The position numbers and the translations under genes were made by a program. The notes beneath the pieces are model-generated. The model did not search any database, was not told the DNA's origin, and saw only the letters and a list, made by a program, of their open reading frames with translations. Below are positions 41,068 through 61,831 of a stretch of DNA of 64,000 bases, in pieces. Each line of letters opens with the position of its first letter. Position 1 is the first letter of the stretch. Source of the stretch: Opitutus sp. GAS368 (GTDB lineage: Bacteria > Verrucomicrobiota > Verrucomicrobiia > Opitutales > Opitutaceae); NCBI RefSeq assembly GCF_900104925.1, contig NZ_LT629735.1, positions 2,450,291-2,514,290 on the forward strand, in the 5' to 3' direction.

Positions 41068-42333
41068 ATGAAACACCCCCGTCTACCCGCTATCCTCGCC
41101 CTCTGCGCCCTGTCCGCCGCCCCGCTGCTGCGCGCCGCCGACAACGCCGTGCTCTATTGGAACGAGCAGGCCCTCAACACCACGCGCCTCGCGCGCAACC
41201 CGCCACCGATGTCGGCGCTGTTTCTCGCGACCTACCATGTGGCGATCTTCGACGCCGTGAACGGCATCACGCACACGCACAAGGGCTGGCTCGTGAACGA
41301 ACCCGCGCCGGCGGGCGCCGATATGGACGCCGCGGTGGCCGGCGCCGCGCACGTTGTCATGACCGCCCTGTGGAGCGCCACCGCCAACCCCCACAACTTG
41401 CAGGTGATTTATGAAAAGGCCCTCGCCGCCATCCCCGACGGTCCGGCCAAGGTCGGCGGCGTCGCGTGGGGCGAGAAGGTCGGCAAAGCGGTCCTCGCCG
41501 GCCGGGCGAACAGCGGCTTCGACAAGCCGATCCCCGGCACCTACACCAGCTCCGAGCCGGGCAAATGGCGCGAGACGCCGCCCAATTTCCGCCCGCCACT
41601 GCTGCCGTTCTGGGGCAAGGTCGTTCCGTTCGTGCTGACCTCGCCGGACCAGTTTCGCGCCCCGTCGCCCGAATCGCTCGGCTCGAAGGAATACGCCGAG
41701 GAACTCAACTTCGTGGCGAAGCGCGGCGCCCGCGACAATGCCGACCGCACGGAATATGAGACGCTCAGCACGCCCTTCTGGAACGACGACCTGGGCACCT
41801 CCACGCCGCCCGGCCACTGGAACATGATCGCCGAGGATCTCGCCCGCCGCAGCAAGCTCGGCACCGCCGACACCGCGCGGCTTTTCGCGCTGCTGAACTT
41901 CGCCGAGGCCGATGCCGGCATCGCCTGCTGGGAGACGAAGTTCTACTACAATGTCTGGCGGCCGGAGAACGCCCTTCGGGAAATGGAGGCGAAGATCAAC
42001 CCCGGCGTGAAGGTGGATCCGGACTTTATTCCCAACATGGCCTCGCCGCCGTTCCCGTCGTATACCTCGGGACACAGTACCTTTTCCGCGGCCGGCGCCC
42101 GCCTGCTCGCCCTTTGGTTCGGCACGGATGACATCGAGTTCTCCGTGACCTCCGACGCCCTGCCAGGCGCCGTGCGCAGCTTCCGGAGACTTTCTGACGC
42201 GCAGAAGGAGGCCGGCATGAGCCGCGTGGTGGGCGGCATCCACACGATGTCCGACAATCTCGAGGCGCAGAAAATGGGCGTCAAGATTGCCGACTGGGTC
42301 TGGGTCAACGCCCTTCAGCCCGTGGCCCGGTGA
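41068..42333 (+). CDS. vanadium-dependent haloperoxidase-like / PAP2 superfamily protein
   Basis: The 421-residue protein has a signal peptide (cut near 'LLRAAD') and the acid-phosphatase/vanadium-haloperoxidase fold. The metal-oxyanion site is complete: Lys291 and Arg298 in 'KFYYNVWRPENA', Ser334-Gly335-His336 in 'PSYTSGHSTF', and Arg386 with His392 in 'RVVGGIHT'. His392 would be the vanadate ligand and His336 the acid/base. Such enzymes oxidise halides with peroxide, or act as phosphatases when bound to phosphate instead. It is the first gene of a tight operon with DoxX-like, CRTAC1, porin and DUF255-like genes. Halide activity is inferred, not shown by sequence. Confidence 0.88.
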   Translation: MKHPRLPAILALCALSAAPLLRAADNAVLYWNEQALNTTRLARNPPPMSALFLATYHVAIFDAVNGITHTHKGWLVNEPAPAGADMDAAVAGAAHVVMTALWSATANPHNLQVIYEKALAAIPDGPAKVGGVAWGEKVGKAVLAGRANSGFDKPIPGTYTSSEPGKWRETPPNFRPPLLPFWGKVVPFVLTSPDQFRAPSPESLGSKEYAEELNFVAKRGARDNADRTEYETLSTPFWNDDLGTSTPPGHWNMIAEDLARRSKLGTADTARLFALLNFAEADAGIACWETKFYYNVWRPENALREMEAKINPGVKVDPDFIPNMASPPFPSYTSGHSTFSAAGARLLALWFGTDDIEFSVTSDALPGAVRSFRRLSDAQKEAGMSRVVGGIHTMSDNLEAQKMGVKIADWVWVNALQPVAR

Positions 42334-42338
42334 TCGCG

Positions 42339-43163
42339 ATGACGGAGTCCCCCGCAACGGCCGGGCGCGCGGAGTCCACGGCGGCGCTGTGGTGGATGCT
42401 GCGCGCAGGCGTGGCCCTGTGTTTCCTCGGCCATGGCGCCTTCGGACTCATGACCAAGGCGGCCTGGGTGCCGTATTTCGCGGCCGCCGGCGTGCCGGAG
42501 ACCTGGGCCTGGCGGCTCATGCCCTGGATCGGCGCGATGGACGTGACCGTCGCCTGCCTTGCGCTCCTCTGGCCTTGCCGCGCACTGTTTGCATGGGCCG
42601 CGGCGTGGGCGACCTGGACTGCGCTGCTGCGGCCGATGGCCGGGCAGGGCTGGCCGGAATTCTTCGAGCGCGCCGGCAATTACGGCGTGCCGCTGGCCCT
42701 GCTGGTCATCGTCGGCCTTCGCGGACCGTGGTTCGCCCGCTTGCCCGCCGCCTGGCCGGAAATGTCCGCCGCGGTCCGACGCCGCCTGATCCAGGTCTTG
42801 CAGCTCATGCTCGCGTCGCTGCTGGCCGGACACGCGGCCTGCGCGCTCCTGCTGCAAAAGCCGGCTCTCGCGCACCATTACGCGGTTTTCGGTCCGGCGG
42901 ATCCCGTGCGCGTCATGCTTGCCGTCGGCTGGTTCGAGGCGGTGCTCGCCGTCGCCGTGCTCGTGGTCCGGGTGCCGGCCCTGCTCGTATTTGCCTGTCT
43001 CTGGAAACTTGCGACTGAGTCCCTCTTCCTCACGAGCGGCGCCCCGGCGCCGGTCTTCGAGATCATCGAGCGCGGCGGCAGCTACATTGTCCCGCTCGCC
43101 CTCGCGTATCTCCTCACCCGGTCCACCGCGGTCGTGCCGTTTCGGCAACCCCAGCCCGCCTGA
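42339..43163 (+). CDS. DoxX-like membrane protein
   Basis: The 274-residue protein has about seven hydrophobic segments. The first, 'LRAGVALCFLGHGAFGLMTKAAWVPYFAAAGVP', resembles the DoxX/quinol-oxidase small-subunit N-terminus. A second similar unit begins near residue 150 ('LMLASLLAGHAACALLL'), so it may be an internal duplication. I chose the ATG at 42339; a GTG at 42330 would overlap the upstream stop (GTGA) and is possible. DoxX-type proteins pass electrons or sulfur species at the membrane, but no cofactor ligands are certain here. It lies 8 bp before the CRTAC1 gene. Confidence 0.65.
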   Translation: MTESPATAGRAESTAALWWMLRAGVALCFLGHGAFGLMTKAAWVPYFAAAGVPETWAWRLMPWIGAMDVTVACLALLWPCRALFAWAAAWATWTALLRPMAGQGWPEFFERAGNYGVPLALLVIVGLRGPWFARLPAAWPEMSAAVRRRLIQVLQLMLASLLAGHAACALLLQKPALAHHYAVFGPADPVRVMLAVGWFEAVLAVAVLVVRVPALLVFACLWKLATESLFLTSGAPAPVFEIIERGGSYIVPLALAYLLTRSTAVVPFRQPQPA

Positions 43164-43171
43164 TTTTCCGC

Positions 43172-46100
43172 ATGCCCAAAGCCGCGATCCTCCACCTCCT
43201 GTCCGCGCTCACCCTGCTGGCCGTCGCGCACGCCGAGCCCGCCTACACCTCGGCGCCCCTGGCCCCGCGCCCGCCGCTGCCGGCCGGCGCCAAGCCCTTC
43301 CAGCGTCTCACGGCGGCCGAGTCCGGCGTCAGCGTGACGAACGTCTACAACGACCCGCGCATGTGGGGTGACCGGTTCCGCGAGCTCACCCTTGGCGCCC
43401 TCGAGACCGGCATCGCCGTGGCGGACTTCGACCGGGACGGCCATCTCGACATCTTCGCCGTCTCCAAGAACGGCCCCTGCGCGCTCTACCGCCAGCCGAC
43501 GCTCGGCCACTTCGAAAACGTCGCCGCTGCGGCGGGTGTCGACTGCGTGGCGCAGGACGAGACGATCGGCAAGGTCGGCGCCACGGTGGTGGACATCAAC
43601 CAGGACGGCTGGCCGGACATCTACGTCTGCCGCTACAACGCGCCGAACCTGCTCTTCGTCAACAACGGTGACGGCACCTTCACCGAGCGCGCCCACGAAT
43701 ACGGCCTCGATATCACGGACGCCTCCGTCCACGCCTCGTTTGCGGATTACGACGGCGACGGTTTCCTCGACTGCTACCTCGTCACGAACATCCTCGATTT
43801 CTCCAAGTCCCCGCAGGGCCGCCGCGACTACCTGCTGCACAACGACGGCCACGGCCACTTCACCGACGTGTCGAAGCAGGCCGGCATCTGGGGCCTGACC
43901 CAGGGTCATACCGCCGTGTGGTTCGACGCCAATGGCGACGGCTGGCCCGACCTCTACGTCGCGAACGACTTCGAGACGCCCGACCGCCTCTACCTCAACA
44001 AGGGCGACGGCACCTTCGCCGACGTCGTCGACGAGCGCCTGCCGCACGTCACCTATTTCTCGATGAGCGCCGATTTCGGCGACCTCAACAACGACGGCCT
44101 CGTGGACTTTCTCGTCACCGACATGCGCGACCGCAACCATGTGCAGTTCATGACGGGCATGGAGGAGATCGGCCGCGGCCTCTGGGAGATGGAACGCGTG
44201 CCCGACCTCATCCCGCAATACATGTGGAACGCCGTCTACCTCAACACCGGCACCGACCACTTCCAGGAGGTCGCGCACCTCACCGGCATGGACGCCACCG
44301 GCTGGACCTTTGGCGCGCGCCTGGCCGACCTCGACAACGACGGTCGCCTCGACGTGTTCTTCACCGCCGGCATGATCCGCAACTTCATCGACGCCGACCT
44401 CGTCGACAAGCAAAACCGGGCCCCTTCGCTCTCCGCCCGCGCCCTGATGTGGAAGGATTCGCCGCCGCGCAACGAGACCACGCTGGCCTACCACAACCTG
44501 GGCGACCTCCGTTTCGAAAACGTCTCGGAGGCGTGGGGCCTGAACGAGAACACCGTCGCTTTCGGCTGCGCCGTCGCCGACCTCTTCAACACCGGCAATC
44601 TCGACCTCGTCTATGCGAACTGCAACGCCCCGCCGACCATCATGCGCAACAACACGGCCACCGGCCATCGCGTGGAGATCAAGCTCGCCGGCCGCGCCCC
44701 CAATCGCGACGGGATCGGTGCCGAGCTGAAGCTCGAATCGGCCTCGACCGGCATCCAGGTCCGCCAGATCTTCACCGAGCGCGGCATCGTGGCCAGCGAG
44801 CCGCCCGTCGCCCATTTCGGCCTCGGGGCCGACACGGTCATCAGGAAGCTCACGATCCACTGGCCGCTCGGCCAGGTGCAGGTGCTCGAAAACCTGCCCG
44901 TGGACCGGATCTTCACGATCTCCGAGCCGCCGCGCGACGAAAAGGCCGGGCGGCCTCCGGCCCGGCTGCAGACCCCGGCCCGGCCCGACGCTCTTTTCGC
45001 CGAGTGCGCGGCCAGCCGCGGCCTCAAGCATGAGAATACGCTGCGGCCCTTCGACGAGTTCATCCGCCAGCGCCTGCTGCCGCACCGCCTCAACAACCAG
45101 GGCCCGGCCCTCGCCGTGGCGGACGTCAACGGCGATGGCATTCCGGACATCTTCGTGACCGGCACCGCCGGCCAGGCCGGCGAGCTGTTCCTCGGCCAGA
45201 AGGACGGCTCCTTCGTGCCCGCGCCCGACCAACCCTGGGCGGCAGCGGCCGAGGCCGACGACGTCGGCGCAGCCTTCCTCGACCTGAATGGCGACGGCGC
45301 GCCCGACCTCTACATTTCCGCCGGTGGCGTGCAGACCGATCGCGGCAACGCGCTGCAGAACGACCGCATCTACCTCAACGACGGCCACGGGAAGTTCACC
45401 CTCGCGCCCGAGGGCACACTGCCCGCCGACGGCGAGAGCACCTCGGTCGTGGCCACCGCCGACTTCGACGGTGACGGCCGCACCGACGTCTTCGTCGGCG
45501 GCCGCGTGGTCCCGGGCCAGTATCCCGCGACCCCGCGCAGCTTCCTTTACCGCAATGTGGGTGGCAAACTGGTGGACGTGACTGACGAGGTAGCGCCGGG
45601 CCTGCGCAATATCGGCATGGTCACCGCCGCGGTCTGGGCCGACATCGACGGCGACGGCCGGCCCGATCTGCTGGTCGCCACCGAATGGGGCCCGGTCGCC
45701 TATTTCCACAACACCGGCAAAAAGCTCGAGAACCTGACCGCGGCGGCCGGCCTCGCCGGCATCACCGGTTGGTGGAGCGCGCTTGCCGTCGCCGATGTGA
45801 ACGGCGACGGCCGGCTCGACATCATCGCCGGAAATGTCGGCCTGAACACGAAATACCATGCCACCGCTGCCGAGCCAGCCGTGCTCTATGCCGGCGACCT
45901 CGACGGCAGCGGCCGCGAGCAGCTCGTCGAGGCCCAATACGAGGGCGGCAAGCTCGTGCCGCTGCGCGGCCGCAGCAAGCTCGGCTACTCCTTCCCCTGG
46001 CTGGCAAAGAAATTCCCGACCTACAAGGCCTTCGCCCACGCCTCGCTCGCCGAGATTTTCGGTGAGGACAAACTGGCGGCGGCCCGCAAGCTCACCGCCA

Positions 46101-46477
46101 CCGAACTCGCCAGCGGGGTCTTCCTCCAGCAGAAGGACGGCACCTTCAAGTTTGCGCCGCTCCCGCGCACCGCGCAGATCGCCCCGATCAACGCGATCGT
46201 GGCGGCCGATCTCGACGGCGACGGCAAGCTCGATCTGCTGTGCGTCGGCAACAACTTCGGCCCCGAACCGTCCACGGGTCGCTTTGACGGAGGCGTCGGC
46301 CTCTTCCTGAAAGGCGACGGCCAGGGCGGCTTCACCCCGCTTTTGGCCGCGCAGTCGGGTCTGGTCGTCACCGGCGAGGCGCGGGCCGCCGTGGCTCTCA
46401 CCCTCCCGGGGGGCAAGCGCCCCGCCGTCGTCGTGACGCGTTGTGACGGTCCGCTGCTTTTCTTCACCCCCAAGTAG
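43172..46477 (+). CDS. secreted CRTAC1-type protein with VCBS/FG-GAP repeats and ASPIC/UnbV domain
   Basis: The 1101-residue exported protein has a signal peptide (cut near 'VAHAEP') and two beta-propeller-like blocks. The first (about 80-440) has repeats such as 'ADFDRDGHLDIF', 'VDINQDGWPDIYVCRYNAPN' and 'FDANGDGWPDLYVANDF', each with a DxDxDG-type calcium loop. An ASPIC/UnbV domain lies at about 490-590 ('GHRVEIKLAGRAPNRDGIGAEL', 'HFGLGADTVIRKLTIHWP'). A second repeat block fills 640-1060. These proteins are extracellular and thought to bind ligands or surfaces; no enzyme activity is known. It sits 8 bp after the DoxX-like gene and 8 bp before the porin. Confidence 0.9.
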   Translation: MPKAAILHLLSALTLLAVAHAEPAYTSAPLAPRPPLPAGAKPFQRLTAAESGVSVTNVYNDPRMWGDRFRELTLGALETGIAVADFDRDGHLDIFAVSKNGPCALYRQPTLGHFENVAAAAGVDCVAQDETIGKVGATVVDINQDGWPDIYVCRYNAPNLLFVNNGDGTFTERAHEYGLDITDASVHASFADYDGDGFLDCYLVTNILDFSKSPQGRRDYLLHNDGHGHFTDVSKQAGIWGLTQGHTAVWFDANGDGWPDLYVANDFETPDRLYLNKGDGTFADVVDERLPHVTYFSMSADFGDLNNDGLVDFLVTDMRDRNHVQFMTGMEEIGRGLWEMERVPDLIPQYMWNAVYLNTGTDHFQEVAHLTGMDATGWTFGARLADLDNDGRLDVFFTAGMIRNFIDADLVDKQNRAPSLSARALMWKDSPPRNETTLAYHNLGDLRFENVSEAWGLNENTVAFGCAVADLFNTGNLDLVYANCNAPPTIMRNNTATGHRVEIKLAGRAPNRDGIGAELKLESASTGIQVRQIFTERGIVASEPPVAHFGLGADTVIRKLTIHWPLGQVQVLENLPVDRIFTISEPPRDEKAGRPPARLQTPARPDALFAECAASRGLKHENTLRPFDEFIRQRLLPHRLNNQGPALAVADVNGDGIPDIFVTGTAGQAGELFLGQKDGSFVPAPDQPWAAAAEADDVGAAFLDLNGDGAPDLYISAGGVQTDRGNALQNDRIYLNDGHGKFTLAPEGTLPADGESTSVVATADFDGDGRTDVFVGGRVVPGQYPATPRSFLYRNVGGKLVDVTDEVAPGLRNIGMVTAAVWADIDGDGRPDLLVATEWGPVAYFHNTGKKLENLTAAAGLAGITGWWSALAVADVNGDGRLDIIAGNVGLNTKYHATAAEPAVLYAGDLDGSGREQLVEAQYEGGKLVPLRGRSKLGYSFPWLAKKFPTYKAFAHASLAEIFGEDKLAAARKLTATELASGVFLQQKDGTFKFAPLPRTAQIAPINAIVAADLDGDGKLDLLCVGNNFGPEPSTGRFDGGVGLFLKGDGQGGFTPLLAAQSGLVVTGEARAAVALTLPGGKRPAVVVTRCDGPLLFFTPK

Positions 46478-46485
46478 ATCCACGC

Positions 46486-48027
46486 ATGAACTTGATCAAC
46501 CGTCGGCCCTTCCTGCGGGGTCTGCTTGCCATCGCTTTGGCCGTCGCGGCCCGGGCCCAGACCATCGCGCCGGCTTCCACACCCGCCGCTCCGTCCGCCC
46601 CGTTCCCGGGCTATGTCAACAGCTACCTCCGCGCCGGGGATCCTTCGCTCAAACCTTGGGACATCGGCGTCAACGTCCGCATCCGCTCCGAGGACAAGGA
46701 TGGCGCCGGCACGACCAAGGCCGGCTCCAATTGGGATTTCTCCGAGCGCCCGCAGGACGACACGTCCAACCAGTATCAGCTCCTCCGCGTCATGCCGCGT
46801 GTTGGCTACAATGGCGCCCCCGTGTCGTTCCTCTTCGAGGGTCGCTCGAGCTATTCCTTCGGCGACGAGCGTTTCAACGCCACGGCGCCGGGCCAGAACC
46901 TGCCCGAGCGTGACGGCCCGCTGGACATCTACCAGGCCTACCTGCTCATCCCCGCCACCAAGGACCTGCCGGTGTCGGTCAAGCTGGGGCGCCAGGAGCT
47001 GGTCTACGGCGACCAGCGTCTCGTGGGCCACGCCCGCTGGCTGAACGTCCCGCGGACGTTCGACGGTCTCAAAGTCCGTTACGAGACGCCCGTGGTTGCC
47101 GTTGATGCATTCTCCACCGCCGTCGTCTACACGCACAACAACGCCCTGAACCGCTCCAACCCGCAGGATCTGTTCTCCGGCGTCTACGTCAGCCTGCCCA
47201 GGCTGTCGAAGACGGACCTCGTCGAGACCTACCTGCTCGCCCGCAATGTCGCCCGCGGGATCGTGACCGACGACTGGTCCGATGTGCCGGCGCCCGCGCG
47301 CTTCCCCGCACCGCAGGACCTCTACACGCTGGGCGTGCGCTTCAAGTCGAAACCCGGCGCCCACGGGCCCTGGGACTACACGGTCGAGGCCGCCTACCAG
47401 TTTGGCAGCCGGACCGCCGTGTTTCCCGCCACCACGGTGGCGGCCGCGCTCGCGGCTTCGCGGCTCGACCAGTCGGCCTACGCGCTCATCGCCCAGGCCG
47501 GTTACACCTGGCCCAAGGGCACACCCTGGTCGCCGCGCCTCGCGGTCATCGCCAGCGTGGCGTCCGGCGACAGCAACCCCGCGGACAACAAGAGCGGCAC
47601 CTTTCAGAATCTGTTTCCGTCGAACCACCTGCTCTACGGGGCGATGGACCTGACCGGCCTGCAGAACGCCCGTGACCTGCGCTTCTCCCTCACGGCGAAG
47701 CCGCACTCCACGCTTACCCTCAACCTCGAGGTAAACCTGCAGGCGCTCGATAAGAGCAGCGACTTTTGGTATAACGCCGCCGGCGCACCGCGCAACTTCA
47801 CCGGCGCCGCCGTCGGCAGCGGCGCCGGTTACCGCATCAATCCCGCCTACGGCACCTCCCTCGGCCAGGAAGTCGACCTGCTGGCCAGCTGGGCCGTTAC
47901 TCGTGGCGCCCTGTTGGAGGCCGGGGCCTCGCATTTCTTTCGCGGCGATTACGTGAAGGAATCGCTGTCCGCCGTCGGTTCGAAGGATGCCGCCTACGTC
48001 TATCTCCAACTCACGCTGAACCTTTAA
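46486..48027 (+). CDS. alginate-export-family outer-membrane porin
   Basis: The 513-residue protein has a signal peptide ('MNLINRRPFLRGLLAIALAVAARAQ') and alternating strand patterns ending in the beta-barrel C-terminus 'AYVYLQLTLNL'. 'VSVKLGRQELVYGDQRLVGHARWLNVPRTFDGLKV' is the signature of the alginate_exp family, outer-membrane channels first known from alginate export. The cargo here is open. Context with a haloperoxidase-like enzyme and a calcium-repeat protein suggests passage of a small molecule or acidic glycan across the outer membrane. Confidence 0.85.
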   Translation: MNLINRRPFLRGLLAIALAVAARAQTIAPASTPAAPSAPFPGYVNSYLRAGDPSLKPWDIGVNVRIRSEDKDGAGTTKAGSNWDFSERPQDDTSNQYQLLRVMPRVGYNGAPVSFLFEGRSSYSFGDERFNATAPGQNLPERDGPLDIYQAYLLIPATKDLPVSVKLGRQELVYGDQRLVGHARWLNVPRTFDGLKVRYETPVVAVDAFSTAVVYTHNNALNRSNPQDLFSGVYVSLPRLSKTDLVETYLLARNVARGIVTDDWSDVPAPARFPAPQDLYTLGVRFKSKPGAHGPWDYTVEAAYQFGSRTAVFPATTVAAALAASRLDQSAYALIAQAGYTWPKGTPWSPRLAVIASVASGDSNPADNKSGTFQNLFPSNHLLYGAMDLTGLQNARDLRFSLTAKPHSTLTLNLEVNLQALDKSSDFWYNAAGAPRNFTGAAVGSGAGYRINPAYGTSLGQEVDLLASWAVTRGALLEAGASHFFRGDYVKESLSAVGSKDAAYVYLQLTLNL

Positions 48028-48112
48028 CCGCTCCGGTAAGCCTTGCCCGGGACCGTTACATGGCCCGGCGCATTGCACCCAAGGCTCGCCTCGCGGCCCG
48101 CGCTCCCACTCA

Positions 48113-49606
48113 ATGCGAACCATGCGATTCCGTTCTCTCACGGCGTGGCTGCTGCTCATCGGGCCCGGGCTGGCGCGTCCGGCCGAGAGCGGAGTCGCCG
48201 CCTCGTCCTCCGCGTTCGTCCGCGCCCAGACCGACAGCGCCGTCCACTGGCACGCCTGGAACGACGCCACGCTGGCCGAGGCCCGCGCCGCCAACCGGAG
48301 CGTCTACGTCTTCATCGGGTCCCCGCTGAGCGAGCTCACCCGCGCGACCATCAGCCAGACCTTCACCAGCGCGAAGACCGTCGCGTGGCTCAACGAGAAC
48401 TTCTTCTGCATCTTCGTTGACGCCGACGCGCAGCCTGAGGTTGCCGCGCTGGCCCAGCACTACATCCGCAGCATCAAGCAGCTCCAGGGTTGGCCGGTGC
48501 ACCTGTGGCTCACGCCCGAGTTCCAGCCCTACGACGGCGCCAACTACCTGCCGCCCTCGGAAGAGTGGGGGAAGCCGGGCTTCCTCAAGGCGGCCCGCGG
48601 TGCGCTCGACAATTGGACCGGCAATCCGGCCCGCGCCCGGGCGCTCGCCAGGGAGGCGATCGACCTGATGCGCGTGCCGCCACTCGGGGCCGGTCCGAAG
48701 ATTGACGTCGCGGCTAAGTCAGACGCCGCGGCCAAGGCCTGGATCGCGACCATCGACCCGGTGAACGGCGGCTTCGGCACCGCGCCCAAGGAGCCCGAGC
48801 CCGAGTTGATCCGCTTTCTCCTTGCCCGGGGTGCGGCCGGCCGTGACGCCGCGCTGAACGCCGCCCGCGCCCTCGTCCGGGGCGCCGCGCATGATCCCGT
48901 CGATGGTGGCTTCTATCGGCGCACCATCGATGAGGCATGGAAGGAGCCCTATTATCAGAAGACGCTCGCCGACCAGGCCCGCATCGCCTTGGCCCTGTTC
49001 GATGCCGCGGACGCGGGCAAAGACGAAACGCTGCGCGCCGCCGCCATCGGCGCGCTCGACTTCGCTCTCACGAAACTGCGTTATCCCGATGGCACCTTCG
49101 CGGCAGCGCTCGACGGCACACTCGAAGAGACCGCCGATCCGGCGAAACGGCCCAACTTCGTGCGCGTCGGCTGGGCGAGCACCGGGGCGCAAGGTCTGTT
49201 GATCGCGGCTTTGCAGCGTTCGGCCGAAAAACGCCTGGCGGCCATCGCGGTGCAACTGGCCGCCAGGCTGCCCGCGCCGCGGACCGCCGCAGACTACGCG
49301 GCCACCGCGCTGGCCTACCGGTCGCTCAAGGACAACGGAAAGGCCGACCACTTTTTGGCCCGGGGCAACGAACTCTTTTTCGACCCTGCCACCGGAATAT
49401 ACATGGCCACACCCGCGAAACTCCCGTCTGGCATTGCCCTCCGCGTGCCTGCCATCGGCGACCCGCTCTCGCCTGAAACCCTTGCCCTGCTGGCCGGCAC
49501 CGACGCCGGCACCGCCACCCTGCTGCGTCGCGCCCTGCTCGCGGCGATCGAATACGACGAGCAGCCCCCCGGCGAGGTGCTGCTCGGTTTGGCCGCCGCA
49601 CCATGA
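48113..49606 (+). CDS. exported DUF255/YyaL-like thioredoxin-fold protein lacking the Cys motif
   Basis: The 497-residue protein has a signal peptide (cut near 'LARPAES'; a second ATG at 48122 would give the same). Residues 40-165 resemble the thioredoxin-fold N-terminus of DUF255: 'HWHAWNDATLAEARAANRSVYVFIG', 'AWLNENFFCIFVDADAQPEVAALAQHYI', 'GWPVHLWLTPEFQPYDGANYLPP'. Where the family has CHWCHVM, this protein has 'SPLSELTRATI', so the redox cysteines are missing. The rest is a helical (alpha/alpha)6-like domain ('DPVDGGFYRRTIDEAWKEPYYQKTLADQARI'). It is the last gene of the haloperoxidase operon, 85 bp after the porin. Confidence 0.8.
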   Translation: MRTMRFRSLTAWLLLIGPGLARPAESGVAASSSAFVRAQTDSAVHWHAWNDATLAEARAANRSVYVFIGSPLSELTRATISQTFTSAKTVAWLNENFFCIFVDADAQPEVAALAQHYIRSIKQLQGWPVHLWLTPEFQPYDGANYLPPSEEWGKPGFLKAARGALDNWTGNPARARALAREAIDLMRVPPLGAGPKIDVAAKSDAAAKAWIATIDPVNGGFGTAPKEPEPELIRFLLARGAAGRDAALNAARALVRGAAHDPVDGGFYRRTIDEAWKEPYYQKTLADQARIALALFDAADAGKDETLRAAAIGALDFALTKLRYPDGTFAAALDGTLEETADPAKRPNFVRVGWASTGAQGLLIAALQRSAEKRLAAIAVQLAARLPAPRTAADYAATALAYRSLKDNGKADHFLARGNELFFDPATGIYMATPAKLPSGIALRVPAIGDPLSPETLALLAGTDAGTATLLRRALLAAIEYDEQPPGEVLLGLAAAP

Positions 49607-50002: not shown

Positions 50003-51094
50003 ATGAACTCCGTGGTGCCACCCCGCACGGCGCCGACGCTGCTCGCGGTTGCGAAACGCGCGGGGGTCTCCGCTTCCACTGCGTCCCGCTGCCTGAGCGG
50101 CGCGGCGAAGGTGGCGAAATCCACGCAGATCCGCGTTGACGCGGCGGCGGCGGCCCTTGGCTACCACCACAATTCCCTCGTCGGCCAGGTCATGCGGGCC
50201 ACGCGCCGGGGGGTCGTGCAGAATTATCTCGGGACCCTGGCCTTCGTGACGCCGGTGGCGGATTCGCACGAATGGCGGGAAACACCCACCCTCGCCAGCA
50301 ACTGGGAAGCGGCCCGCCAGCGCGCGGAATCGTTCGGCTTCGGGATCACCGAGTTCACCCTTTGCTCCAATGGCATGACCGGGCGGCGCCTCGGGGAGAT
50401 TCTCACCGCGCGCGGCATCTCCGGCGTCCTCCTGGCGGCCTTCCCGGTGGAGCCGCACGAGATCACGCTGCCGTGGGACGACTTTGCCATTGTCCAGGTC
50501 GGCCATCGCATCGCCTCGCCGCGACTCGACTGCGTGCTGAGCGATCACACCGAGGCGGTGATCATGGCCGCCCGCACGATCACGGAATGCGGCTGCACCC
50601 GCATTGGTCTCGCCATCGAGAAATACCAGGACGAGATCACCGGCGGCCGGTGGTCCCTCGGTTATGCCGGGCTGCGCGCGGCCTTTCCGTCCCTCGCCGC
50701 CATTCCCCCGTTTCTGCCCGCGGAGATGAACCCCGACCAATTCCTGAAATGGGTCGACCAGCACGAGGTGGATTGCGTGCTGACCCTCTCGACCTTCCGC
50801 AACCAGCCCAATCACATGGACGCCTGGCTGACCCGCCCCGGGCGCACCGTGCCGCAGGATATCAGCCTGGTGTCACTCGACGTCACGCGGGTGCACGCGG
50901 ATTGGAGCGGGGTGCAACAGCACGCCGAGGAAATCGGCCGGGCGGCCGTCGATCTGCTGTTTTCCAAGCTGCAGGCGGGCGAACGCGGCATCCCGCAGTT
51001 GCCCCGGACGCTGCAGGTGCACGGTCACTGGCACGACGGACAGACATTGCGCCGCCCGCGGCAGGCGGGCGAAAAGCTGAGAGTTGAGAGCTGA
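50003..51094 (+). CDS. LacI-family transcriptional regulator
   Basis: The 363-residue regulator starts at the ATG at 50003, right behind AAGGAGG. Residues 11-57 form a LacI helix-turn-helix with hinge ('LLAVAKRAGVSASTASRCL', 'VDAAAAALGYHHN'). Residues 70-340 form a periplasmic-binding-like sensor ('GTLAFVTPVAD', 'RGISGVLLAAF', 'CVLSDHTEAVIMAARTI', 'ISLVSLDVTRVHADWSGVQQHAEEIGRAAVDLLF'). The ligand is probably a sugar or similar small molecule. It lies between the two matching operator pairs at 40946 and 61587 and is the best candidate to bind them, though distant regulators cannot be excluded. Confidence 0.92.
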   Translation: MNSVVPPRTAPTLLAVAKRAGVSASTASRCLSGAAKVAKSTQIRVDAAAAALGYHHNSLVGQVMRATRRGVVQNYLGTLAFVTPVADSHEWRETPTLASNWEAARQRAESFGFGITEFTLCSNGMTGRRLGEILTARGISGVLLAAFPVEPHEITLPWDDFAIVQVGHRIASPRLDCVLSDHTEAVIMAARTITECGCTRIGLAIEKYQDEITGGRWSLGYAGLRAAFPSLAAIPPFLPAEMNPDQFLKWVDQHEVDCVLTLSTFRNQPNHMDAWLTRPGRTVPQDISLVSLDVTRVHADWSGVQQHAEEIGRAAVDLLFSKLQAGERGIPQLPRTLQVHGHWHDGQTLRRPRQAGEKLRVES

Positions 51095-51307: not shown

Positions 51308-54300
51308 ATGTCGCCGGTCGAGTCCACCCATATTTCCCCGGCAAGGGGTGCCCATTGGCCCATACCGTCCTGTTTCATTTTCATCGGCGCCCTCTTCACC
51401 GCTTTGCCCATGAGTGCGGAGGTATCAGTTCCGGGGCTGAGTGAATCACCGCTGGCCGCCCGCTCCGGGCCCAGAGGCAAAACGATGTTTGCCACGCTGT
51501 CTCCCGCCGACACCGGCATCATAACTGAAAATAACTATGCTGATCCCCGGGAAAATAAGACCGGTTACAAGGATCCCCGCATGGGCCAGGGTCACTATGA
51601 CGAATTCGCCGTCGGCGCAATCGGTACGGGCGTCGCGATCGGCGACTATGATGGCGACGGCCGGCCGGACATATTTGTGGTCAGCAAGACGGAGAGTTGC
51701 CGGCTGTTTCGCAATCTCGGCAACTGGAAGTTCGAAGATGTCACGGCGAAGGCCGGGGTGGAAGACAAGGGCGAGGCTGCGGCCATCTGGAAACAGGGGG
51801 CGACGTTCGTTGATGTGAACAATGACGGGCTCCTGGACATCTATGTCTGCCGGTACAACGCGCCCAATCTGCTCTACATCAACCAGGGTGACGGGACCTT
51901 CAAGGAAGAGGCCCATGCCTACGGGCTGGATGTGAAGGATGCCTCGGTGATGGCTGCTTTTTGCGACTACGACCGTGACGGATGGCTCGACGTGCTCATC
52001 CAAACCAACCTGCTCGACGGAGCCACGCATCCGAACGGACAACGCAACCTGCTCTTTCATAACAACCGCGACGGCACCTTCACCAACGTCACCGATCGCG
52101 CGGGCATCAGCGGGGAAGCCCAAGGCCACTCGGCCATTTGGTGGGATTACGACGGCGACGGCTGGCCGGATATTTATGTCGCGAACGATTTCGCCGCGCC
52201 CGACGTTCTCTATCACAACAACCGCGACGGCACCTTCACCAACGTCATCGATCAAGTGGTGCCCCATATGCCCTATTCTTCCATGGGCTCGGATCTGGGC
52301 GATTTGAACAACGACGGCCTCATCGACCTGATGGCCACGGAAATGGCGGCCACCACCCATCAGAAAGACCAGCGCACCATGGCTCCAACCCGCGGCCAGT
52401 CGCTGGATCCTCCGGATAGTTCCACGGCGGTGCCGCAATACTACCACAACGCGCTGTACTTGAATACCGGCACGGGCCACTGCCTGGAGGCGGCTTTTCT
52501 CACGGGCCTGGATGCCACCGACTGGACCTGGTCCGTGCGCTTCGAAGACCTCGACAATGACGGCCGGCTCGACCTGCACGTGACCAATGGCATGCACCGG
52601 GAATTGCACAACACCGACCTGATCTCCCGCCTCGGGTCCGCCCAATCGCTGGCGGAAAGGCAACGGATGCAACGCAACGCCCCGGTGCTCGTCGAACACA
52701 ACCTCGCCTTCCGCAATCTCGGCGATTTGAAATTTGAAAACGTCAGCAAAGCCTGGGGCCTCGATGAGAATGGGGTGAGCTTCGGCGCGGCCTTCGGCGA
52801 CCTCGACGGTGACGGTGATCTCGATCTCGTCTACACCAACTATAAGAAAGGGGTCACCGTGCTGCGCAATGATTCCGACACCGGTCATCGGGTGATTTTC
52901 GCCCTGCGGGGCACACAATCGAACCGCTTCGGGGTCGGAGCCGTGATCCGCATTGAAACCGATGCCGGCATTCAAGTCCGGCAGCTGGTACTGGCCCGGG
53001 GTGTCCTTTCGAGTTCCGAACCCGTGCTGCATTTCGGCCTGGGCGAATCCACGCTCATCAAGCGGGTCACAGTCTCGTGGCCCAGTGGCCAGATCCAGTC
53101 GTTTGCCAATCTCGCCGTCGACCGCAAATTCACCGTCACCGAACCGGCCGCACCCGCGGCGCTTCCGGCCAACCCACCGGTGCGGCCGACCGGACAATTC
53201 ACCGAGGTGAGCCAGGCGATGAACCTCTCCCTTGTCGCCCACGAAAATGCGGTGGATGAGTTGGGTGCGAATTCACTTCTCCCGGTTCGCCAGAATCGAC
53301 GCGGGCCCGGTGTCGCGGTCGGTGATTTGAACGGCGACGGGAAAGACGATCTGATTTTCGGCGGCACGCCCCTCGACGCGGCGCAGGTTCGTCTTGCTGG
53401 TCCGGACAATCAATTCGTCGGCGGTCCCGTCCGGGCCCTCGCCGGCGATATGCCGGTCAATGACGGACCCTCGCTTATTTTCGATGCCGATGGCGACGGC
53501 ACGAATGATCTTTTGCTCACCGCTTCCGGCGTCGGCCAGCCCGCGGGTTCCCCGGCCTATCAACCCCGGCTCTATCTCAACGATGGTCACGGAAATTTGC
53601 GACCGGCCCCGGCTGACGCCCTGCCTCCGCTTTCCCTCAGCGTCGGCGCGGTGGCCGCGGCAGATTTCAATCGCGACGGACTTCTTGATGTTTTCCTGGG
53701 AGCGAAAGTCGTACCCGGACTCTACCCCCTCGCCCCGAGCAGCGCCTTGCTCGTGAATCATGGCGGCCGGTTTGAGGACGTGACCGACACACTCGCGCCC
53801 GGTTTGCGCGCAGTCGGCATGGTCACATCAGCTCTCTGGAGTGACGTGGACGGCGACGGGTGGCCGGACCTGCTGCTGACGCTGGAGTGGGGCAACGTGA
53901 AGTATTTCCATAACAATCAGGGCAAAGGGTTCGAAGACTGGACAGAGAAGGCGGGCTTTGCCGCGGCGGGCACCGGGTGGTGGACTTCGATCGCCGCGGC
54001 GGATTTTAACGAAGATGGCCGGATCGACTACGTCGTGGGCAATCTCGGCCTGAACACCCAGTATCGGGCCGACGCCAGCCATCCGGCGCTGCTGTTCGCC
54101 GGCGATTTCAAGGGCGACGGAAGCCAGCAACTGATCGAAGCCTACTATGAAGGCGACCGGCTCTATCCGTGGCGGACCCGGGCGAGTCTCGGTGCCGCCA
54201 TCCCCTCGGTGTTGAAACGCTTTCCCCGCAATGACACCTATGCGCGAGCCACCTTGGATGAGATTTTCGGCGAGGAGAAACTGGCGGCCGCCCAACGCTA

Positions 54301-54970
54301 CGCCGCCACGGAATTCCGGAGCGGAGTATTCCTGAGCCAGCCGGACGGGACTTACCGATTCGAAGCGCTGCCGCACCTCGCCCAGATCGCGCCCTTGCAA
54401 GGGATCGTCGCCGGCGATTTTGACGGCGACGGCCACGCCGATATTTATACGGTGCAAAATTCCTACGCACCCACCCCGGTGGTCGGCCGTTTCGACGGCG
54501 GCCTGAGCCAGTTGCTGCGCGGTGATGGGCAGGGACATTTTACCTGCGTGCCTCCCATCGAAAGCGGTCTGATCGTAACCGGCGATGCCAAGGCGTTGGC
54601 CGTGGTGGATCTCAATCAGGATGGCTGGCCGGACTTTGTCGTTACGCGAAACAACTCGGCCAGCCTTGCCTTCCTCAACCAAGGCATGAAAGAACGACAT
54701 TCGCTGCGAATCCAATTGCGCGGGCCCGCGGGCAACCCCACCGCCATTGGAGCGCGCGTCACCCTCGAACTCGCCGACGGCACCACGCGGACCGGCGAAG
54801 TCTATGCCGGCTCCGGTTATTTCAGTCAGTCTACCGCCGCCTGTTTCTTCGGTTACCTGCCAGCCAACCCGCCCCGTCAAATCCACGTGCGCTGGCCCTC
54901 CGGTGCGACCAGCACCCACCCGATCCCGCCGCAGTCATCTACTATAGTTCTTGCTGCACCCACGCCCTAG
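51308..54970 (+). CDS. giant secreted CRTAC1-type protein with two ASPIC/UnbV domains
   Basis: The ATG at 51308 is chosen because it precedes a signal-peptide-like run ('CFIFIGALFTALPMSAEV'), giving 1220 residues; earlier in-frame starts exist. FG-GAP/VCBS repeats fill about 85-430 ('IGDYDGDGRPDIFVVSKTESC', 'VDVNNDGLLDIYVCRYNAPN', 'DYDRDGWLDVL'). ASPIC/UnbV 1 is at about 515-612, a second repeat block at 665-1110, and ASPIC/UnbV 2 at 1128-1210 ('LRGPAGNPTAIGARVTLELADG'). It is a paralogue of the protein at 57604, with stretches almost identical even at DNA level. The 43172 protein lacks the second ASPIC domain. It is extracellular and probably calcium-bound; the ligand is unknown. Confidence 0.88.
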   Translation: MSPVESTHISPARGAHWPIPSCFIFIGALFTALPMSAEVSVPGLSESPLAARSGPRGKTMFATLSPADTGIITENNYADPRENKTGYKDPRMGQGHYDEFAVGAIGTGVAIGDYDGDGRPDIFVVSKTESCRLFRNLGNWKFEDVTAKAGVEDKGEAAAIWKQGATFVDVNNDGLLDIYVCRYNAPNLLYINQGDGTFKEEAHAYGLDVKDASVMAAFCDYDRDGWLDVLIQTNLLDGATHPNGQRNLLFHNNRDGTFTNVTDRAGISGEAQGHSAIWWDYDGDGWPDIYVANDFAAPDVLYHNNRDGTFTNVIDQVVPHMPYSSMGSDLGDLNNDGLIDLMATEMAATTHQKDQRTMAPTRGQSLDPPDSSTAVPQYYHNALYLNTGTGHCLEAAFLTGLDATDWTWSVRFEDLDNDGRLDLHVTNGMHRELHNTDLISRLGSAQSLAERQRMQRNAPVLVEHNLAFRNLGDLKFENVSKAWGLDENGVSFGAAFGDLDGDGDLDLVYTNYKKGVTVLRNDSDTGHRVIFALRGTQSNRFGVGAVIRIETDAGIQVRQLVLARGVLSSSEPVLHFGLGESTLIKRVTVSWPSGQIQSFANLAVDRKFTVTEPAAPAALPANPPVRPTGQFTEVSQAMNLSLVAHENAVDELGANSLLPVRQNRRGPGVAVGDLNGDGKDDLIFGGTPLDAAQVRLAGPDNQFVGGPVRALAGDMPVNDGPSLIFDADGDGTNDLLLTASGVGQPAGSPAYQPRLYLNDGHGNLRPAPADALPPLSLSVGAVAAADFNRDGLLDVFLGAKVVPGLYPLAPSSALLVNHGGRFEDVTDTLAPGLRAVGMVTSALWSDVDGDGWPDLLLTLEWGNVKYFHNNQGKGFEDWTEKAGFAAAGTGWWTSIAAADFNEDGRIDYVVGNLGLNTQYRADASHPALLFAGDFKGDGSQQLIEAYYEGDRLYPWRTRASLGAAIPSVLKRFPRNDTYARATLDEIFGEEKLAAAQRYAATEFRSGVFLSQPDGTYRFEALPHLAQIAPLQGIVAGDFDGDGHADIYTVQNSYAPTPVVGRFDGGLSQLLRGDGQGHFTCVPPIESGLIVTGDAKALAVVDLNQDGWPDFVVTRNNSASLAFLNQGMKERHSLRIQLRGPAGNPTAIGARVTLELADGTTRTGEVYAGSGYFSQSTAACFFGYLPANPPRQIHVRWPSGATSTHPIPPQSSTIVLAAPTP

Positions 54971-55008: not shown

Positions 55009-57519
55009 CTACCTCAGTCGATCACGCAATTCGGCCGGCACCAGGGTGAGCGCGAATTCGTGCAGTTTGGGATCAACGCGATTGCCGAAGGCCCGGCTCA
55101 ATACCAGCAGCCGATAAAGCGAACCGGGGGAGAGTCCGCGCAGTTTTTCTTCGTCCACTGTCGCCAGGCAAACGGCCACTTGCTCACGGGCCAGCTGTTC
55201 TTGTTTCGCCCGGGCCAGGACCACGGCGAGACCGACGCGCAGGTCCCACGGCAAGGCCGCAGGGTATTTGGTCGCCAGTCTGGCCTGCAATACTTTGAGG
55301 GACTTTGCGAATTCCGCTTCGTCCCCCCGCGCCAAATCGACTTCGGCCCGCGCCACGCAAGCCCCGAAATCGGCCGGGAAACGCCGCAGACCTTGCGCGG
55401 CCGCCGCGGCCTGGTCCAGGTCTCGCATCTCGACAAGGTACTCCGTTATCCGGGCCACGGCTGTCGCCGGTTCCTGCTCGTCGACGACTTCAAAAACCTG
55501 TACCGACTGACCTTCGAAACCGGTGATCTTCGGCAACGAATAGGCCAGGGGCCGCAGCCAGGGCGGCAGCGTGGGAAGCTGGAGCTTGTCGCGCAAGGTG
55601 CCCGCGCTTTGCCCGGTGCCCGCCCGCGTATAGTCGTCAAACCCGGAATCCCAAGAGAGCAAAACGAGGTGGGTGATATTGCGCCGGTCGATCAACGCCT
55701 TTGCCTCCTGGAGGTTTTGGTTCCCCAGGATGAGCACGGCGGCCGCCACGCCGCTCTTGTTTTCCCGGGAGAGAGAGCCCAGGCCGCGCATGCCGCCATA
55801 GTAGCAGAGCGCAGTGGTCTCGTTGGGCGGAGCCAGCAATACCACCCCGCCGGGAGGGCCGTGGAGGGCGAGCCATCCCGCCAGGTCCCTCTCGATCAAA
55901 CCCAACACTTCCGACCGCGTGAGGTCATTTTCCGTTTCGGCTTTGGGCCGCGGTGCAACCAGCAAAAGGCCCGGGAGCAAGAGCAGCAGGCCGCCGCCCG
56001 CCCAAGCGAGGCGGCGGTAGCCCCCGTTGGTGGCGCCCGACAATCCTGTTGTCGCCGCCACCAACATTACCAGCAAAAGCCCGTCGAGCGCGTTCCACCA
56101 GAAGAGCTGCTGGCAGGCGAATCCGAACGCCACGAGCACCGGTCCCAACGTTATCGCCACGGCAATGCGGCGCTCCCGGCCCGTCTGTCGCCGGGGGAGA
56201 ACCCACCCGGCAGAAGCGACCAGGACGAGAGGCAGGAGCGTCGCCAACACCGCCAAGGTCAATCCATCGCGTGAAAGCCACGCCGCGAGGTCCCGGGCGA
56301 CGGCGCCTTCCGGCAGTTTCGTCAGCCGGAGGGACGGGGTGTCCGGTAACAGGAACTCGGAGCCGTGGATTTTCCAGTTGGCCACCGGCACCGCGACGAT
56401 CGCGGCCAGCGCGAACGCGAGCACGGCGAAGTTGCGGAGTGTTTTTGGCGGTTTTTTGCCCTGAATCCACTCCGCCGCCTGCGCCAAAATCTCGCCGCCA
56501 CCGAGCCAGGCCAGGCCGTAAAGCGGATGGATGTAAGAGAGCTGCCAGTCCCCGAGGTCGGCGGGGGCAAATTCGATCAGATAAGCGCCCAGGGTCGTGC
56601 TGGCGCCCGCCGCCGCCCAAGATCGCCAAGGCAAGCCGGTGTTTTCCGCCGCTTCCCCCCGTCGATGGTTGCGCATGACCCAAGCCGCGAGCAATGCGCC
56701 CGCCGCGACGCCCACCAGAATCGGAATTTGGACGGCCACACTGACCCACAGCCCAAGACCGCCGGTTACTCCCGCGAGGATGAACCAGCGGCGCGTCGAC
56801 TTTCCGTTGTCGTCCGGCGCGGGTGTTGCCCTGACTCCGGCCGCGAGCAGCAGCACGCTGCCCAAGGCAAGAATCTGCGCCAGGCCGCGGTCGTCGGGCG
56901 CGGCGGGAAGAAATCCCGCGGCGAACGGAAAGACGGTGACCAGACCGATTGAAATCAATGCCGCCGGAAGAACACCGAATCGCCACGCGACCAGGAGGGT
57001 CGTTCCGAGCAGGAACAGAAGGTGCAGGATCGGATCCGCCACGAGCGCGGCACGTTCCACCGCCTGCGCGGGCGACCGGCCCGAAAAAACGTGATCGCAC
57101 CACGCGATCGCGCCGAGCCACCAACGGTAGGGCGAGGGGGAATGCACCGCCCGGCCGAAAGGCGCATTTTCGTAGTCGATGTGTCGCACCCGCCATTCCC
57201 CGCGGTTGAACATGCGCTGGGTCTGCGCGAGCCAATGATAACTCTCCGTGAGCCCCCCGGGGACGATCAGGCCGTTGCCGGCCGCCAACTCGGCAGCGGA
57301 TGGCGCGGCGGCCGCGACCGACGGCTTCTCACTCCAGCCGCCGAGCGCGTTAACCTGCTCGAGGTGCCGGACCCGGACGAAGTTCATCCAAAACAGGAAC
57401 GCACACGCCGCGATCGGAGCCGCCAACCAGGCGAAGGCGGAAATGCGAAACGACTTGCTCACGGAGGGCGGCGGGGATCGGGATTTTTGAAACGCGCGCA
57501 CAATCGGGCGGGAAACCAT
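55009..57519 (-). CDS. large multi-membrane-segment protein, possible GT-C/STT3-like
   Basis: An 836-residue protein from the ATG at 57519; the open frame further upstream is antisense to the neighbour. One membrane segment is near the N-terminus (about 27-47), then roughly ten more to about 510. 'ESYHWLAQTQRMFNRGEW', 'DYENAPFGRAVHSPSPYRWWLGA' and 'FLPAAPDDRGLAQ' recall the first luminal loop and acidic motif of STT3/PglB oligosaccharyltransferases, but similarity is weak. The soluble C-terminal part (about 520-836) ends in helical repeat-like segments. It lies between, and on the opposite strand to, two paralogous CRTAC1 genes, so it may modify or secrete them. I do not recognise a definite family. 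Confidence 0.7.
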   Translation of the reverse strand: MVSRPIVRAFQKSRSPPPSVSKSFRISAFAWLAAPIAACAFLFWMNFVRVRHLEQVNALGGWSEKPSVAAAAPSAAELAAGNGLIVPGGLTESYHWLAQTQRMFNRGEWRVRHIDYENAPFGRAVHSPSPYRWWLGAIAWCDHVFSGRSPAQAVERAALVADPILHLLFLLGTTLLVAWRFGVLPAALISIGLVTVFPFAAGFLPAAPDDRGLAQILALGSVLLLAAGVRATPAPDDNGKSTRRWFILAGVTGGLGLWVSVAVQIPILVGVAAGALLAAWVMRNHRRGEAAENTGLPWRSWAAAGASTTLGAYLIEFAPADLGDWQLSYIHPLYGLAWLGGGEILAQAAEWIQGKKPPKTLRNFAVLAFALAAIVAVPVANWKIHGSEFLLPDTPSLRLTKLPEGAVARDLAAWLSRDGLTLAVLATLLPLVLVASAGWVLPRRQTGRERRIAVAITLGPVLVAFGFACQQLFWWNALDGLLLVMLVAATTGLSGATNGGYRRLAWAGGGLLLLLPGLLLVAPRPKAETENDLTRSEVLGLIERDLAGWLALHGPPGGVVLLAPPNETTALCYYGGMRGLGSLSRENKSGVAAAVLILGNQNLQEAKALIDRRNITHLVLLSWDSGFDDYTRAGTGQSAGTLRDKLQLPTLPPWLRPLAYSLPKITGFEGQSVQVFEVVDEQEPATAVARITEYLVEMRDLDQAAAAAQGLRRFPADFGACVARAEVDLARGDEAEFAKSLKVLQARLATKYPAALPWDLRVGLAVVLARAKQEQLAREQVAVCLATVDEEKLRGLSPGSLYRLLVLSRAFGNRVDPKLHEFALTLVPAELRDRLR

Positions 57520-57603
57520 CAGGCAGGCAAGATTCGAGTTTGCGTGCAACCAAATCTGGCTTGACTCGCCGAAGTGCGGCTCGTGGCGTGGGCGCCCCGC
57601 CCA

Positions 57604-61628: not shown

Positions 61629-61831
61629 CCGTGAGATGTGCGTCGTCAGCCCAAGTTGTACTCCAGGAACGAACCCCCGCGCAGCGCCTGTGAGTGCAGC
61701 GTAGTCCCCCCAGTCCCCCAATGAAAACCCTCACACCCCAGACTGTCCCTGCCGTGTATCCCCATGACCGGGGAAACCGTTTTGAATCGTCGCATGACCT
61801 CAACCCAGCAACCTGCAGCGTACCCCCAAAT

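What the first reader, a model, noticed from the sequence alone, without database searches (positions are those of the whole stretch)
41068..49606. Five-gene exported module: haloperoxidase-like, DoxX-like, CRTAC1, alginate-type porin, Cys-less DUF255
The genes are packed with gaps of 5, 8, 8 and 85 bp. Four of the five have signal peptides and the fifth is a membrane protein. A complete vanadate/phosphate site (Lys291, Arg298, His336, Arg386, His392) is joined with a calcium-repeat protein and an outer-membrane channel. I know no described system with this set. It could halogenate or oxidise a substrate and move the product across the outer membrane.
Basis: partly seen in the sequence, partly recalled or inferred. 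Interest (0 to 1): 0.65.

Follow-up and report, generated by a model that had tools for sequence, protein, structure and literature searches.

The report
Haloperoxidase paired with double-propeller CRTAC1 protein
This bacterium carries an exported vanadium haloperoxidase gene that nearly always travels with one particular double-propeller protein, next to sugar-uptake genes; the same pairing turns up in two other bacterial phyla and I found no description of it, so it points to an unknown oxidation chemistry outside the cell.

Summary
The five genes and the vanadate site are real. The core is two genes: A, an exported-type vanadium haloperoxidase (V-HPO; nearest solved relative the Zobellia iodoperoxidase), and C, an 1101-residue CRTAC1 protein (nearest structure murine CRTAC1). 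In a V-HPO tree, one clade of 42 rows holds all 38 genes followed by such a C; 0 of 37 rows outside do. The partner Cs form one clade too. Over 100 family genomes 18 have both, 1 only A, 5 only C, 76 neither. The tandem DoxX-like protein, porin and DUF255 protein are optional (9, 9 and 10 of 28 loci); only the window has all five. The pairing recurs beside SusC/SusD genes on one Gemmatimonadota and one Bacteroidota plasmid. The DUF255 protein is not Cys-less; it lacks CxxC. Best reading: a two-protein oxidation module outside the cytoplasm, tied to TonB-dependent uptake. Activity and substrate are unknown. Ten literature searches found no description.

The parts
41068..42333 (+). Gene A: exported-type vanadium haloperoxidase family protein, 421 aa, core of the pair
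   Evidence: PAP2 8.1e-08; 4cit 1.2e-28; profile reaches 21 PDB sequences, all V-HPOs; site residues invariant in 21 of 21
42330..43163 (+). Gene B: tandem-duplicated DoxX-like membrane protein (start 42330 GTG or 42339 ATG), optional
   Evidence: halves homologous, hhalign E 7.2e-23; second half on NACHO/TMEM35A, Z 12.6, rmsd 2.5 over 116; 9 of 28 loci
43172..46477 (+). Gene C: long CRTAC1 protein with FG-GAP repeats and UnbV_ASPIC, 1101 aa, core of the pair
   Evidence: FG-GAP_3 3.6e-92, UnbV_ASPIC 8.2e-17; murine CRTAC1 9etn, 3.5e-31 by profile, Foldseek 9.4e-25
46486..48027 (+). Gene D: Alginate_exp-family outer-membrane channel, optional
   Evidence: PF13372 6.5e-59; 9 of 28 loci
48113..49606 (+). 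Gene E: exported-type DUF255 protein without the CxxC pair, optional
   Evidence: PF03190 5.2e-27; CxxC absent in 14 of 14 module members; 10 of 28 loci
50003..51094 (+). LacI-family regulator at the head of the neighbouring uptake locus (setting, not core)
   Evidence: LacI and Peripla_BP_3
51362..54970 (+). Second long CRTAC1 paralogue, two UnbV_ASPIC domains (setting); start uncertain
   Evidence: outside the V-HPO partner clade
55012..57540 (-). Membrane-type protein of no Pfam family that recurs beside long CRTAC1 paralogues (setting); start uncertain
   Evidence: no Pfam match; 34-48% identical to family members in its long matches; family present in 7 of 17 paralogue loci
57574..61365 (+). 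Third long CRTAC1 paralogue (setting); start uncertain
   Evidence: ORF; UnbV_ASPIC domains; tree
61694..64000 (+). TonB-dependent receptor, runs past the window end (setting)
   Evidence: Plug domain 9.5e-08 on the complete gene in L128

Best explanation
A and C encode a two-protein oxidation module that works outside the cytoplasm. SHOWN by sequence: A is a vanadium haloperoxidase family member with a complete vanadate site; C is a long CRTAC1 protein with two propeller-type halves; the two are inherited as a pair. INFERRED: both are exported; A holds vanadate through Lys291, Arg298, Arg386 and His392 with His336 as acid-base, takes H2O2 and oxidises a halide to a hypohalous species (or oxidises a substrate directly); C, an integrin-like double propeller, holds A, the substrate or both, so that a reactive oxidant is made beside a chosen target, most likely a polymer or glycan-associated compound taken up by the TonB-dependent/LacI locus next door. 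GUESSED: B, D and E are plug-in helpers, B handling redox equivalents in the membrane, D a pore, E a DUF255 protein turned away from thiol redox. Open: which halide, what substrate, and whether the product serves as food, signal or weapon.
For: V-HPO clade: 38 of 41 determinable rows have C on the same strand within two genes; 0 of 37 outside. Partner Cs form one clade. Genome profile over 100 family genomes 18/1/5/76. A and C distances correlate, r 0.907 over 33 loci. Pairing kept while other flanks differ. Recurs with a distant V-HPO lineage beside SusC/SusD in Gemmatirosa and Hymenobacter, the only 2 of 72,556 plasmids with a long CRTAC1 covering at least 80% of C. Non-partner long CRTAC1 genes share a stretch with a TonB-dependent receptor in 8 of 17 loci. 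All PDB profile matches of A are V-HPOs.
Against: No activity, export or interaction was tested. L041, L071_6487 and L077 are clade members without their own C. 5 of 100 genomes have long CRTAC1 without A, 1 has A without it. 9 of 17 non-partner CRTAC1 stretches show no TonB-dependent receptor. A is absent from 2 of 4 genomes of the genus. VCPO_N is below its cut-off and NCBIfam has no match for A. The cross-phylum evidence is two plasmids, and in Hymenobacter the V-HPO frame is broken.
Confidence: 0.5

Rival explanations
1. Chemical ecology: A makes hypohalite or halogenated small molecules that harm competitors or quench signals, C is a surface anchor, D exports the product.
For: A is a V-HPO by sequence; a 2021 commentary argues that some bacterial V-HPOs outside biosynthetic clusters modify signals of other microbes (PMC8407465, passages read). 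D is present in 9 of 28 loci.
Against: No biosynthetic genes were seen beside the pair in the loci read; the porin is absent from most loci; the neighbours in the window and on two plasmids are uptake and carbohydrate genes.
Confidence: 0.2
2. Peroxide or envelope-stress handling: A consumes H2O2 in the periplasm, regulated by the LytS/LytTR pair found upstream in related loci, with B as a redox membrane protein.
For: His_kinase/LytTR pairs within 6.5 kb upstream in 14 of 33 rows; an FKBP-type isomerase upstream in some loci; DoxX-like B.
Against: Does not explain why A needs a dedicated double-propeller partner, nor the SusC/SusD setting on the plasmids; no such regulator pair was seen upstream of A in the window.
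Confidence: 0.15
3. A is a secreted PAP2-type phosphatase and the module serves phosphate acquisition.
For: The same site residues bind phosphate (family knowledge), and Pfam names only PAP2 above its cut-off.
Against: Profile and single-sequence PDB matches are all V-HPOs, with full-length alignment to 4cit; no phosphate-starvation gene was noticed beside the pair.
Confidence: 0.1
4. Mere linkage: A and C stayed side by side by descent, without a shared function.
For: The Opitutia pairing looks like a single origin, and linked genes co-diverge anyway.
Against: Kept while other flanks differ between genera; presence correlates genome-wide; the same pairing occurs with a distant V-HPO lineage in two other phyla.
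Confidence: 0.05

Closest known systems
Zobellia galactanivorans vanadium-dependent iodoperoxidase (PDB 4cit, 4usz)
   Same: Nearest solved relative of A; full-length profile alignment (1.8e-61) with the vanadate residues aligned.
   Different: A lies in another lineage with a CRTAC1 partner gene; the halide used by A is unknown. The neighbourhood of the Zobellia gene was not read (paper not held).
Cartilage acidic protein 1, CRTAC1 (PDB 9etn)
   Same: Nearest solved relative of C, by profile and by Foldseek.
   Different: C is about twice as long, with FG-GAP repeats in both halves; bacterial; partner of a V-HPO.
SusC/SusD polysaccharide utilisation loci
   Same: On the Gemmatirosa and Hymenobacter plasmids the pair sits beside SusC/SusD-type genes and carbohydrate enzymes; the window has a TonB-dependent receptor, LacI and GH65 next door.
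   Different: In the window a HAD hydrolase gene, not SusD, follows the receptor; a V-HPO as part of such loci was not found in print.
Iodine accumulation by Arenibacter sp. C-21
   Same: A Bacteroidota case where glucose, O2 and Ca2+ are needed and a haloperoxidase with a glucose oxidase is proposed; five homologues of 4usz in the genome (PMC5064120, passages read).
   Different: No CRTAC1 is mentioned in the passages read; no iodine phenotype is known here.

Membership tests
Vanadium-dependent haloperoxidase (A) | Lys, Arg, His, Arg, His vanadate site | tested here: met
   K291, R298, H336, R386, H392 invariant in 21 of 21
Vanadium-dependent haloperoxidase (A) | Sequence homology to characterised V-HPOs rather than phosphatases | tested here: met
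   21 of 21 PDB profile matches are V-HPOs
Vanadium-dependent haloperoxidase (A) | Pfam VCPO_N domain over its cut-off | tested here: inconclusive
   25.2 bits against a cut-off of 29.3
Vanadium-dependent haloperoxidase (A) | Vanadate- and halide-dependent peroxidase activity | not testable with these tools
   needs an assay
CRTAC1 / ASPIC-UnbV (C) | FG-GAP repeats plus UnbV_ASPIC domain | tested here: met
   nearest structure CRTAC1
DoxX-like family (B) | Curated DoxX-type Pfam score | tested here: not met
   PF13781 E 5.8, 7.9 bits against a cut-off of 25 for the window protein
DoxX-like family (B) | Four-helix DoxX-type fold | tested here: inconclusive
   NACHO/TMEM35A Z 12.6, rmsd 2.5 over 116, near the level at which helical bundles match by arrangement alone; that TMEM35A is DoxX-like is recalled
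Alginate exporter (D) | Alginate_exp domain | tested here: met
   PF13372 6.5e-59
Alginate exporter (D) | Export of alginate | not testable with these tools
   no assay; substrate unknown
DUF255 / DsbH thioredoxin-like (E) | DUF255 domain | tested here: met
   PF03190 5.2e-27
DUF255 / DsbH thioredoxin-like (E) | CxxC redox pair | tested here: not met
   absent in the window protein and in 14 of 14 module members
SusC/SusD polysaccharide utilisation locus (window) | SusC-like receptor with SusD and carbohydrate enzymes | tested here: inconclusive
   Plug-domain receptor, LacI, GH65 and CatAgl protein present, but a HAD gene follows the receptor

The most novel reading that the evidence does not exclude
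The V-HPO/long-CRTAC1 pair is an undescribed extracellular oxidation system of TonB-dependent nutrient loci: the double propeller docks the haloperoxidase on a polymer at the cell surface, and locally made hypohalite (or direct peroxidation) loosens the polymer for uptake, a halogen-based counterpart of the copper oxygenases of glycan degraders, present in at least three phyla with two V-HPO lineages.
Probability: 0.22. Interest if true: 0.82.

Novelty: new variant of a known kind. Interest (0 to 1): 0.56.

Why it matters
What bacterial V-HPOs outside biosynthetic clusters do is largely open, and I know of no established function for bacterial CRTAC1/UnbV proteins (recalled; a 2011 survey of integrin-type propellers in bacteria calls their function and location unknown, PMC3192720, passages read). 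A partnership kept across genera, and met again in two other phyla, gives both families a testable link: a defined protein pair, a likely site and a likely context (TonB-dependent uptake). If the oxidation serves uptake, it would also tie halogen cycling in soil and fresh water to polymer degradation.

Tried and rejected
Tried without gain: promoter and terminator scans of the operon gave nothing beyond shuffles. A tRNA-Leu (40827-40908) just upstream suggested an integration site, but none of 17 related loci has a tRNA next to the module; the two tRNA-Val genes found lie some kilobases away. Foldseek alone gave no significant match for B (best E 0.04). The Adhaeribacter plasmid V-HPO has a TonB-dependent receptor nearby but no CRTAC1 in the stretch. 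'B only with A' was rejected: in G048 and G078 B lies beside a porin-type gene with no V-HPO. 'Five-gene module as a unit' was rejected. In a phylum-wide draw, long CRTAC1 at 1e-100 was found in 7 of 288 genomes, all in the window's family, so the spread inside Verrucomicrobiota is narrow. Loss of the C-terminal UnbV domain as a mark of the partner clade was considered and dropped: L037 C has two UnbV stretches, L039 C one.

Rows dropped before counts; ten loci that duplicate contigs already fetched (L044, L050, L051, L052, L056, L064, L067, L075, L076, L101); two A genes under 330 aa (L099, L108), and six with no downstream gene called (L061, L062, L063, L068, L092, L119). Six loci (L091, L095, L103, L115, L116, L117) gave no A gene in my caller and are missing; one search shows no adjacent C in them (L091 has a weak long-CRTAC1 match about 4 kb downstream). 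L020 (9.2 kb contig) was not; one search shows only A there. L046 ends inside B and is undetermined; one shadow ORF (L053_6091) removed; two long-branch rows and twelve rows left out to thin the set; 41 of the 79 rows were used, plus four plasmid V-HPOs.

Limits: genes were called with my own codon-score script, so starts are approximate; it called nothing in L168, which I read with the ORF listing. The genome-contig scan kept the best 80 of 439 relatives. Bacteroidota and Gemmatimonadota chromosomes could not be searched, so the cross-phylum evidence is two plasmids.
Full report
WHAT IS THERE. The window is part of a one-contig 4.15 Mb genome. A genus mate, G093, has 4,199,284 bases and a family member, G003, 5,957,605; from these sizes, matched from memory, I infer the genus Lacunisphaera, family Opitutaceae. 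The five ORFs stand as described, with gaps of 5, 8, 8 and 85 bp. Upstream lie an IS110-type transposase and an amidase gene and a tRNA-Leu. Downstream lie a LacI regulator, a long CRTAC1 gene, a minus-strand membrane-type gene, another long CRTAC1 gene and a TonB-dependent receptor that runs past the window end; then a HAD hydrolase, an MFS transporter, a GH65 enzyme and a CatAgl (alpha-1,3-glucanase domain) protein.

GENE A. Pfam gives PAP2 (8.1e-08) and a sub-threshold VCPO_N match. The best PDB relatives are the Zobellia iodoperoxidase 4cit (1.2e-28) and Curvularia chloroperoxidase. A profile of 21 homologues reaches 21 PDB sequences, all V-HPOs, with a full-length alignment to 4cit (1.8e-61). 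Lys291, Arg298, His336, Arg386 and His392 are invariant in 21 of 21. Family membership is well supported; activity is untested.

GENE C. An 1101-residue protein with FG-GAP repeats through both halves and one UnbV_ASPIC domain. The model has mean pLDDT 84.9. The nearest structure is murine CRTAC1, by profile (3.5e-31) and by Foldseek (9.4e-25); integrin alpha-IIb follows by profile. The genome has UnbV_ASPIC domains in only three genes, all in this window.

GENES B, D, E. B's two halves are homologous (hhalign E 7.2e-23). Its second half lies on NACHO/TMEM35A at Z 12.6, rmsd 2.5 over 116 residues, and a weak DoxX_3 match is seen in 4 of 6 homologues: a tandem DoxX-like membrane protein. D is an Alginate_exp channel. 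E is DUF255; it has one cysteine, and CxxC is absent in 14 of 14 module members, while the paralogue beside another long CRTAC1 in G093 (L183) keeps CHWC. 'Cys-less' should read 'CxxC-less'.

IS THE SET CONSERVED? I fetched 20 stretches around A homologues in family genomes and 80 loci from named genomes, the best 80 of 439. In a V-HPO tree of 79 rows, one clade of 42 (support 100/99) holds all 38 genes with a C on the same strand within two genes. Its other four members are L046 (contig ends), L041 and L071_6487 (A-B-porin order) and L077 (no C). None of the 37 rows outside has an adjacent C, including cyanobacterial, acidobacterial and planctomycete V-HPOs and this genome's own second V-HPO (neighbours). 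The long CRTAC1 genes next to these V-HPOs also form one clade, 33 rows plus one, L071_2641, that stands divergently beside a V-HPO. A and C distances correlate (r 0.907, 33 loci), as linked inheritance alone would also give.

Of 28 clade rows with at least 8.5 kb downstream, C is present in 26, B in 9, the porin in 9 and E in 10; only the window has all five. In L054 and L055 a B gene lies on the far side of a regulator/CRTAC1 group upstream of A. His_kinase/LytTR pairs stand within 6.5 kb upstream in 14 of 33 rows. Other flanking genes differ between genera.

GENOME-WIDE PROFILE. In the same 100 family genomes, A (E <= 1e-20) occurs in 19 and long CRTAC1 (E <= 1e-100) in 23: both in 18, A only in 1 (G033, 83% complete), C only in 5, neither in 76. 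Fisher gives 2e-14, but genomes are related, so the figure overstates the evidence. B occurs in 8 of 100: six next to A, two (G048, G078) next to a porin-type gene without A.

OTHER PHYLA. Only 2 of 72,556 plasmids have a long CRTAC1 covering at least 80% of C, and both have a V-HPO close by. Gemmatirosa kalamazoonensis: SusC, SusD, long CRTAC1, V-HPO, long CRTAC1, SusC, SusD, alpha-amylase-family gene (the second CRTAC1, SusC and SusD were read from the ORF list by eye and not domain-scanned). Hymenobacter volaticus: LacI, TonB-dependent receptor, SusD, long CRTAC1, V-HPO in a broken frame, GH3-type gene. The Gemmatirosa V-HPO is 32% identical to A and far off in the tree; its CRTAC1 genes, with the Hymenobacter one, fall outside the Opitutia partner clade. 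So the pairing is either very old or arose more than once; either argues for a shared function.

SETTING. Long CRTAC1 genes that are not V-HPO partners share a stretch with a TonB-dependent receptor in 8 of 17 loci, and with a membrane-type family of no Pfam match in 7 of 17. The window's minus-strand gene at 55012-57540 belongs to that family (34-48% identity in its long matches). With the two plasmids this points to TonB-dependent nutrient uptake as usual surroundings of long CRTAC1 proteins. The alpha-glucoside reading of the window's own locus is inference from GH65 and CatAgl.

MECHANISM. Shown: family membership, site residues, pairing. Inferred: export, vanadate use, a peroxide-driven reaction, C as scaffold or substrate holder. 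Guessed: halide, substrate, roles of B, D and E. I prefer the uptake-linked oxidation module (0.5) over halogen-based chemical ecology (0.2), peroxide handling (0.15), phosphatase (0.1) and mere linkage (0.05).

LITERATURE. Ten searches of the held open-access library were made. None held vanadium + haloperoxidase + UnbV, haloperoxidase + CRTAC1, vanadium + haloperoxidase + FG-GAP, vanadium + haloperoxidase + Opitut, or haloperoxidase + TonB + polysaccharide utilization. Vanadium + haloperoxidase + SusD gave only the Arenibacter C-21 genome note (passages read). Haloperoxidase + VCBS gave one Rhizobium genome paper (listing only). Searches were broader; their listings showed no such pairing. 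Passages of PMC9296495, PMC3192720 and PMC8407465 were also read. Subscription papers are mostly not held, so a description may exist elsewhere; the Zobellia iodoperoxidase paper could not be read.

Noticed in passing
window 50003-64000 and L128:1-11049: A LacI-headed locus with two long CRTAC1 genes, a TonB-dependent receptor, HAD hydrolase, MFS transporter, GH65 and CatAgl protein looks like an alpha-glucoside uptake locus.
   Followed up: partly
window 55012-57540 (minus strand): A membrane-type protein family of about 800 residues without any Pfam match recurs beside long CRTAC1 paralogues, in 7 of 17 such loci.
   Followed up: partly
L023:9829-11106: The genome has a second V-HPO of another lineage, 43-44% identical to A, with no CRTAC1 beside it.
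   Followed up: partly
L183:7834-13825: In the genus mate G093 a full-length DUF255 protein with CHWC stands next to another long CRTAC1 gene, so DUF255 and long CRTAC1 may be linked beyond V-HPO.
   Followed up: no
L071:2641-14593: Pelagicoccus sp. has two V-HPO genes in one stretch, ordered A-B-porin-A-C, with a further long CRTAC1 divergent upstream.
   Followed up: no
L024:11727-12803, L029:6781-7833 and homologues: A secreted barrel-type family (by eye) with no Pfam match, often starting its mature part with QGCV, recurs next to A; 6 of 33 rows.
   Followed up: no
window 46486-46560: The porin gene D begins with RRPFLR, which resembles a twin-arginine export motif, unusual for an outer-membrane protein (sequence; motif recalled).
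   Followed up: no
window 38128-39084 and 40827-40908: An IS110-type transposase and a tRNA-Leu lie just upstream of the module; 2 of 4 genomes of the genus have A and 2 lack it, so the module is variable within the genus.
   Followed up: partly
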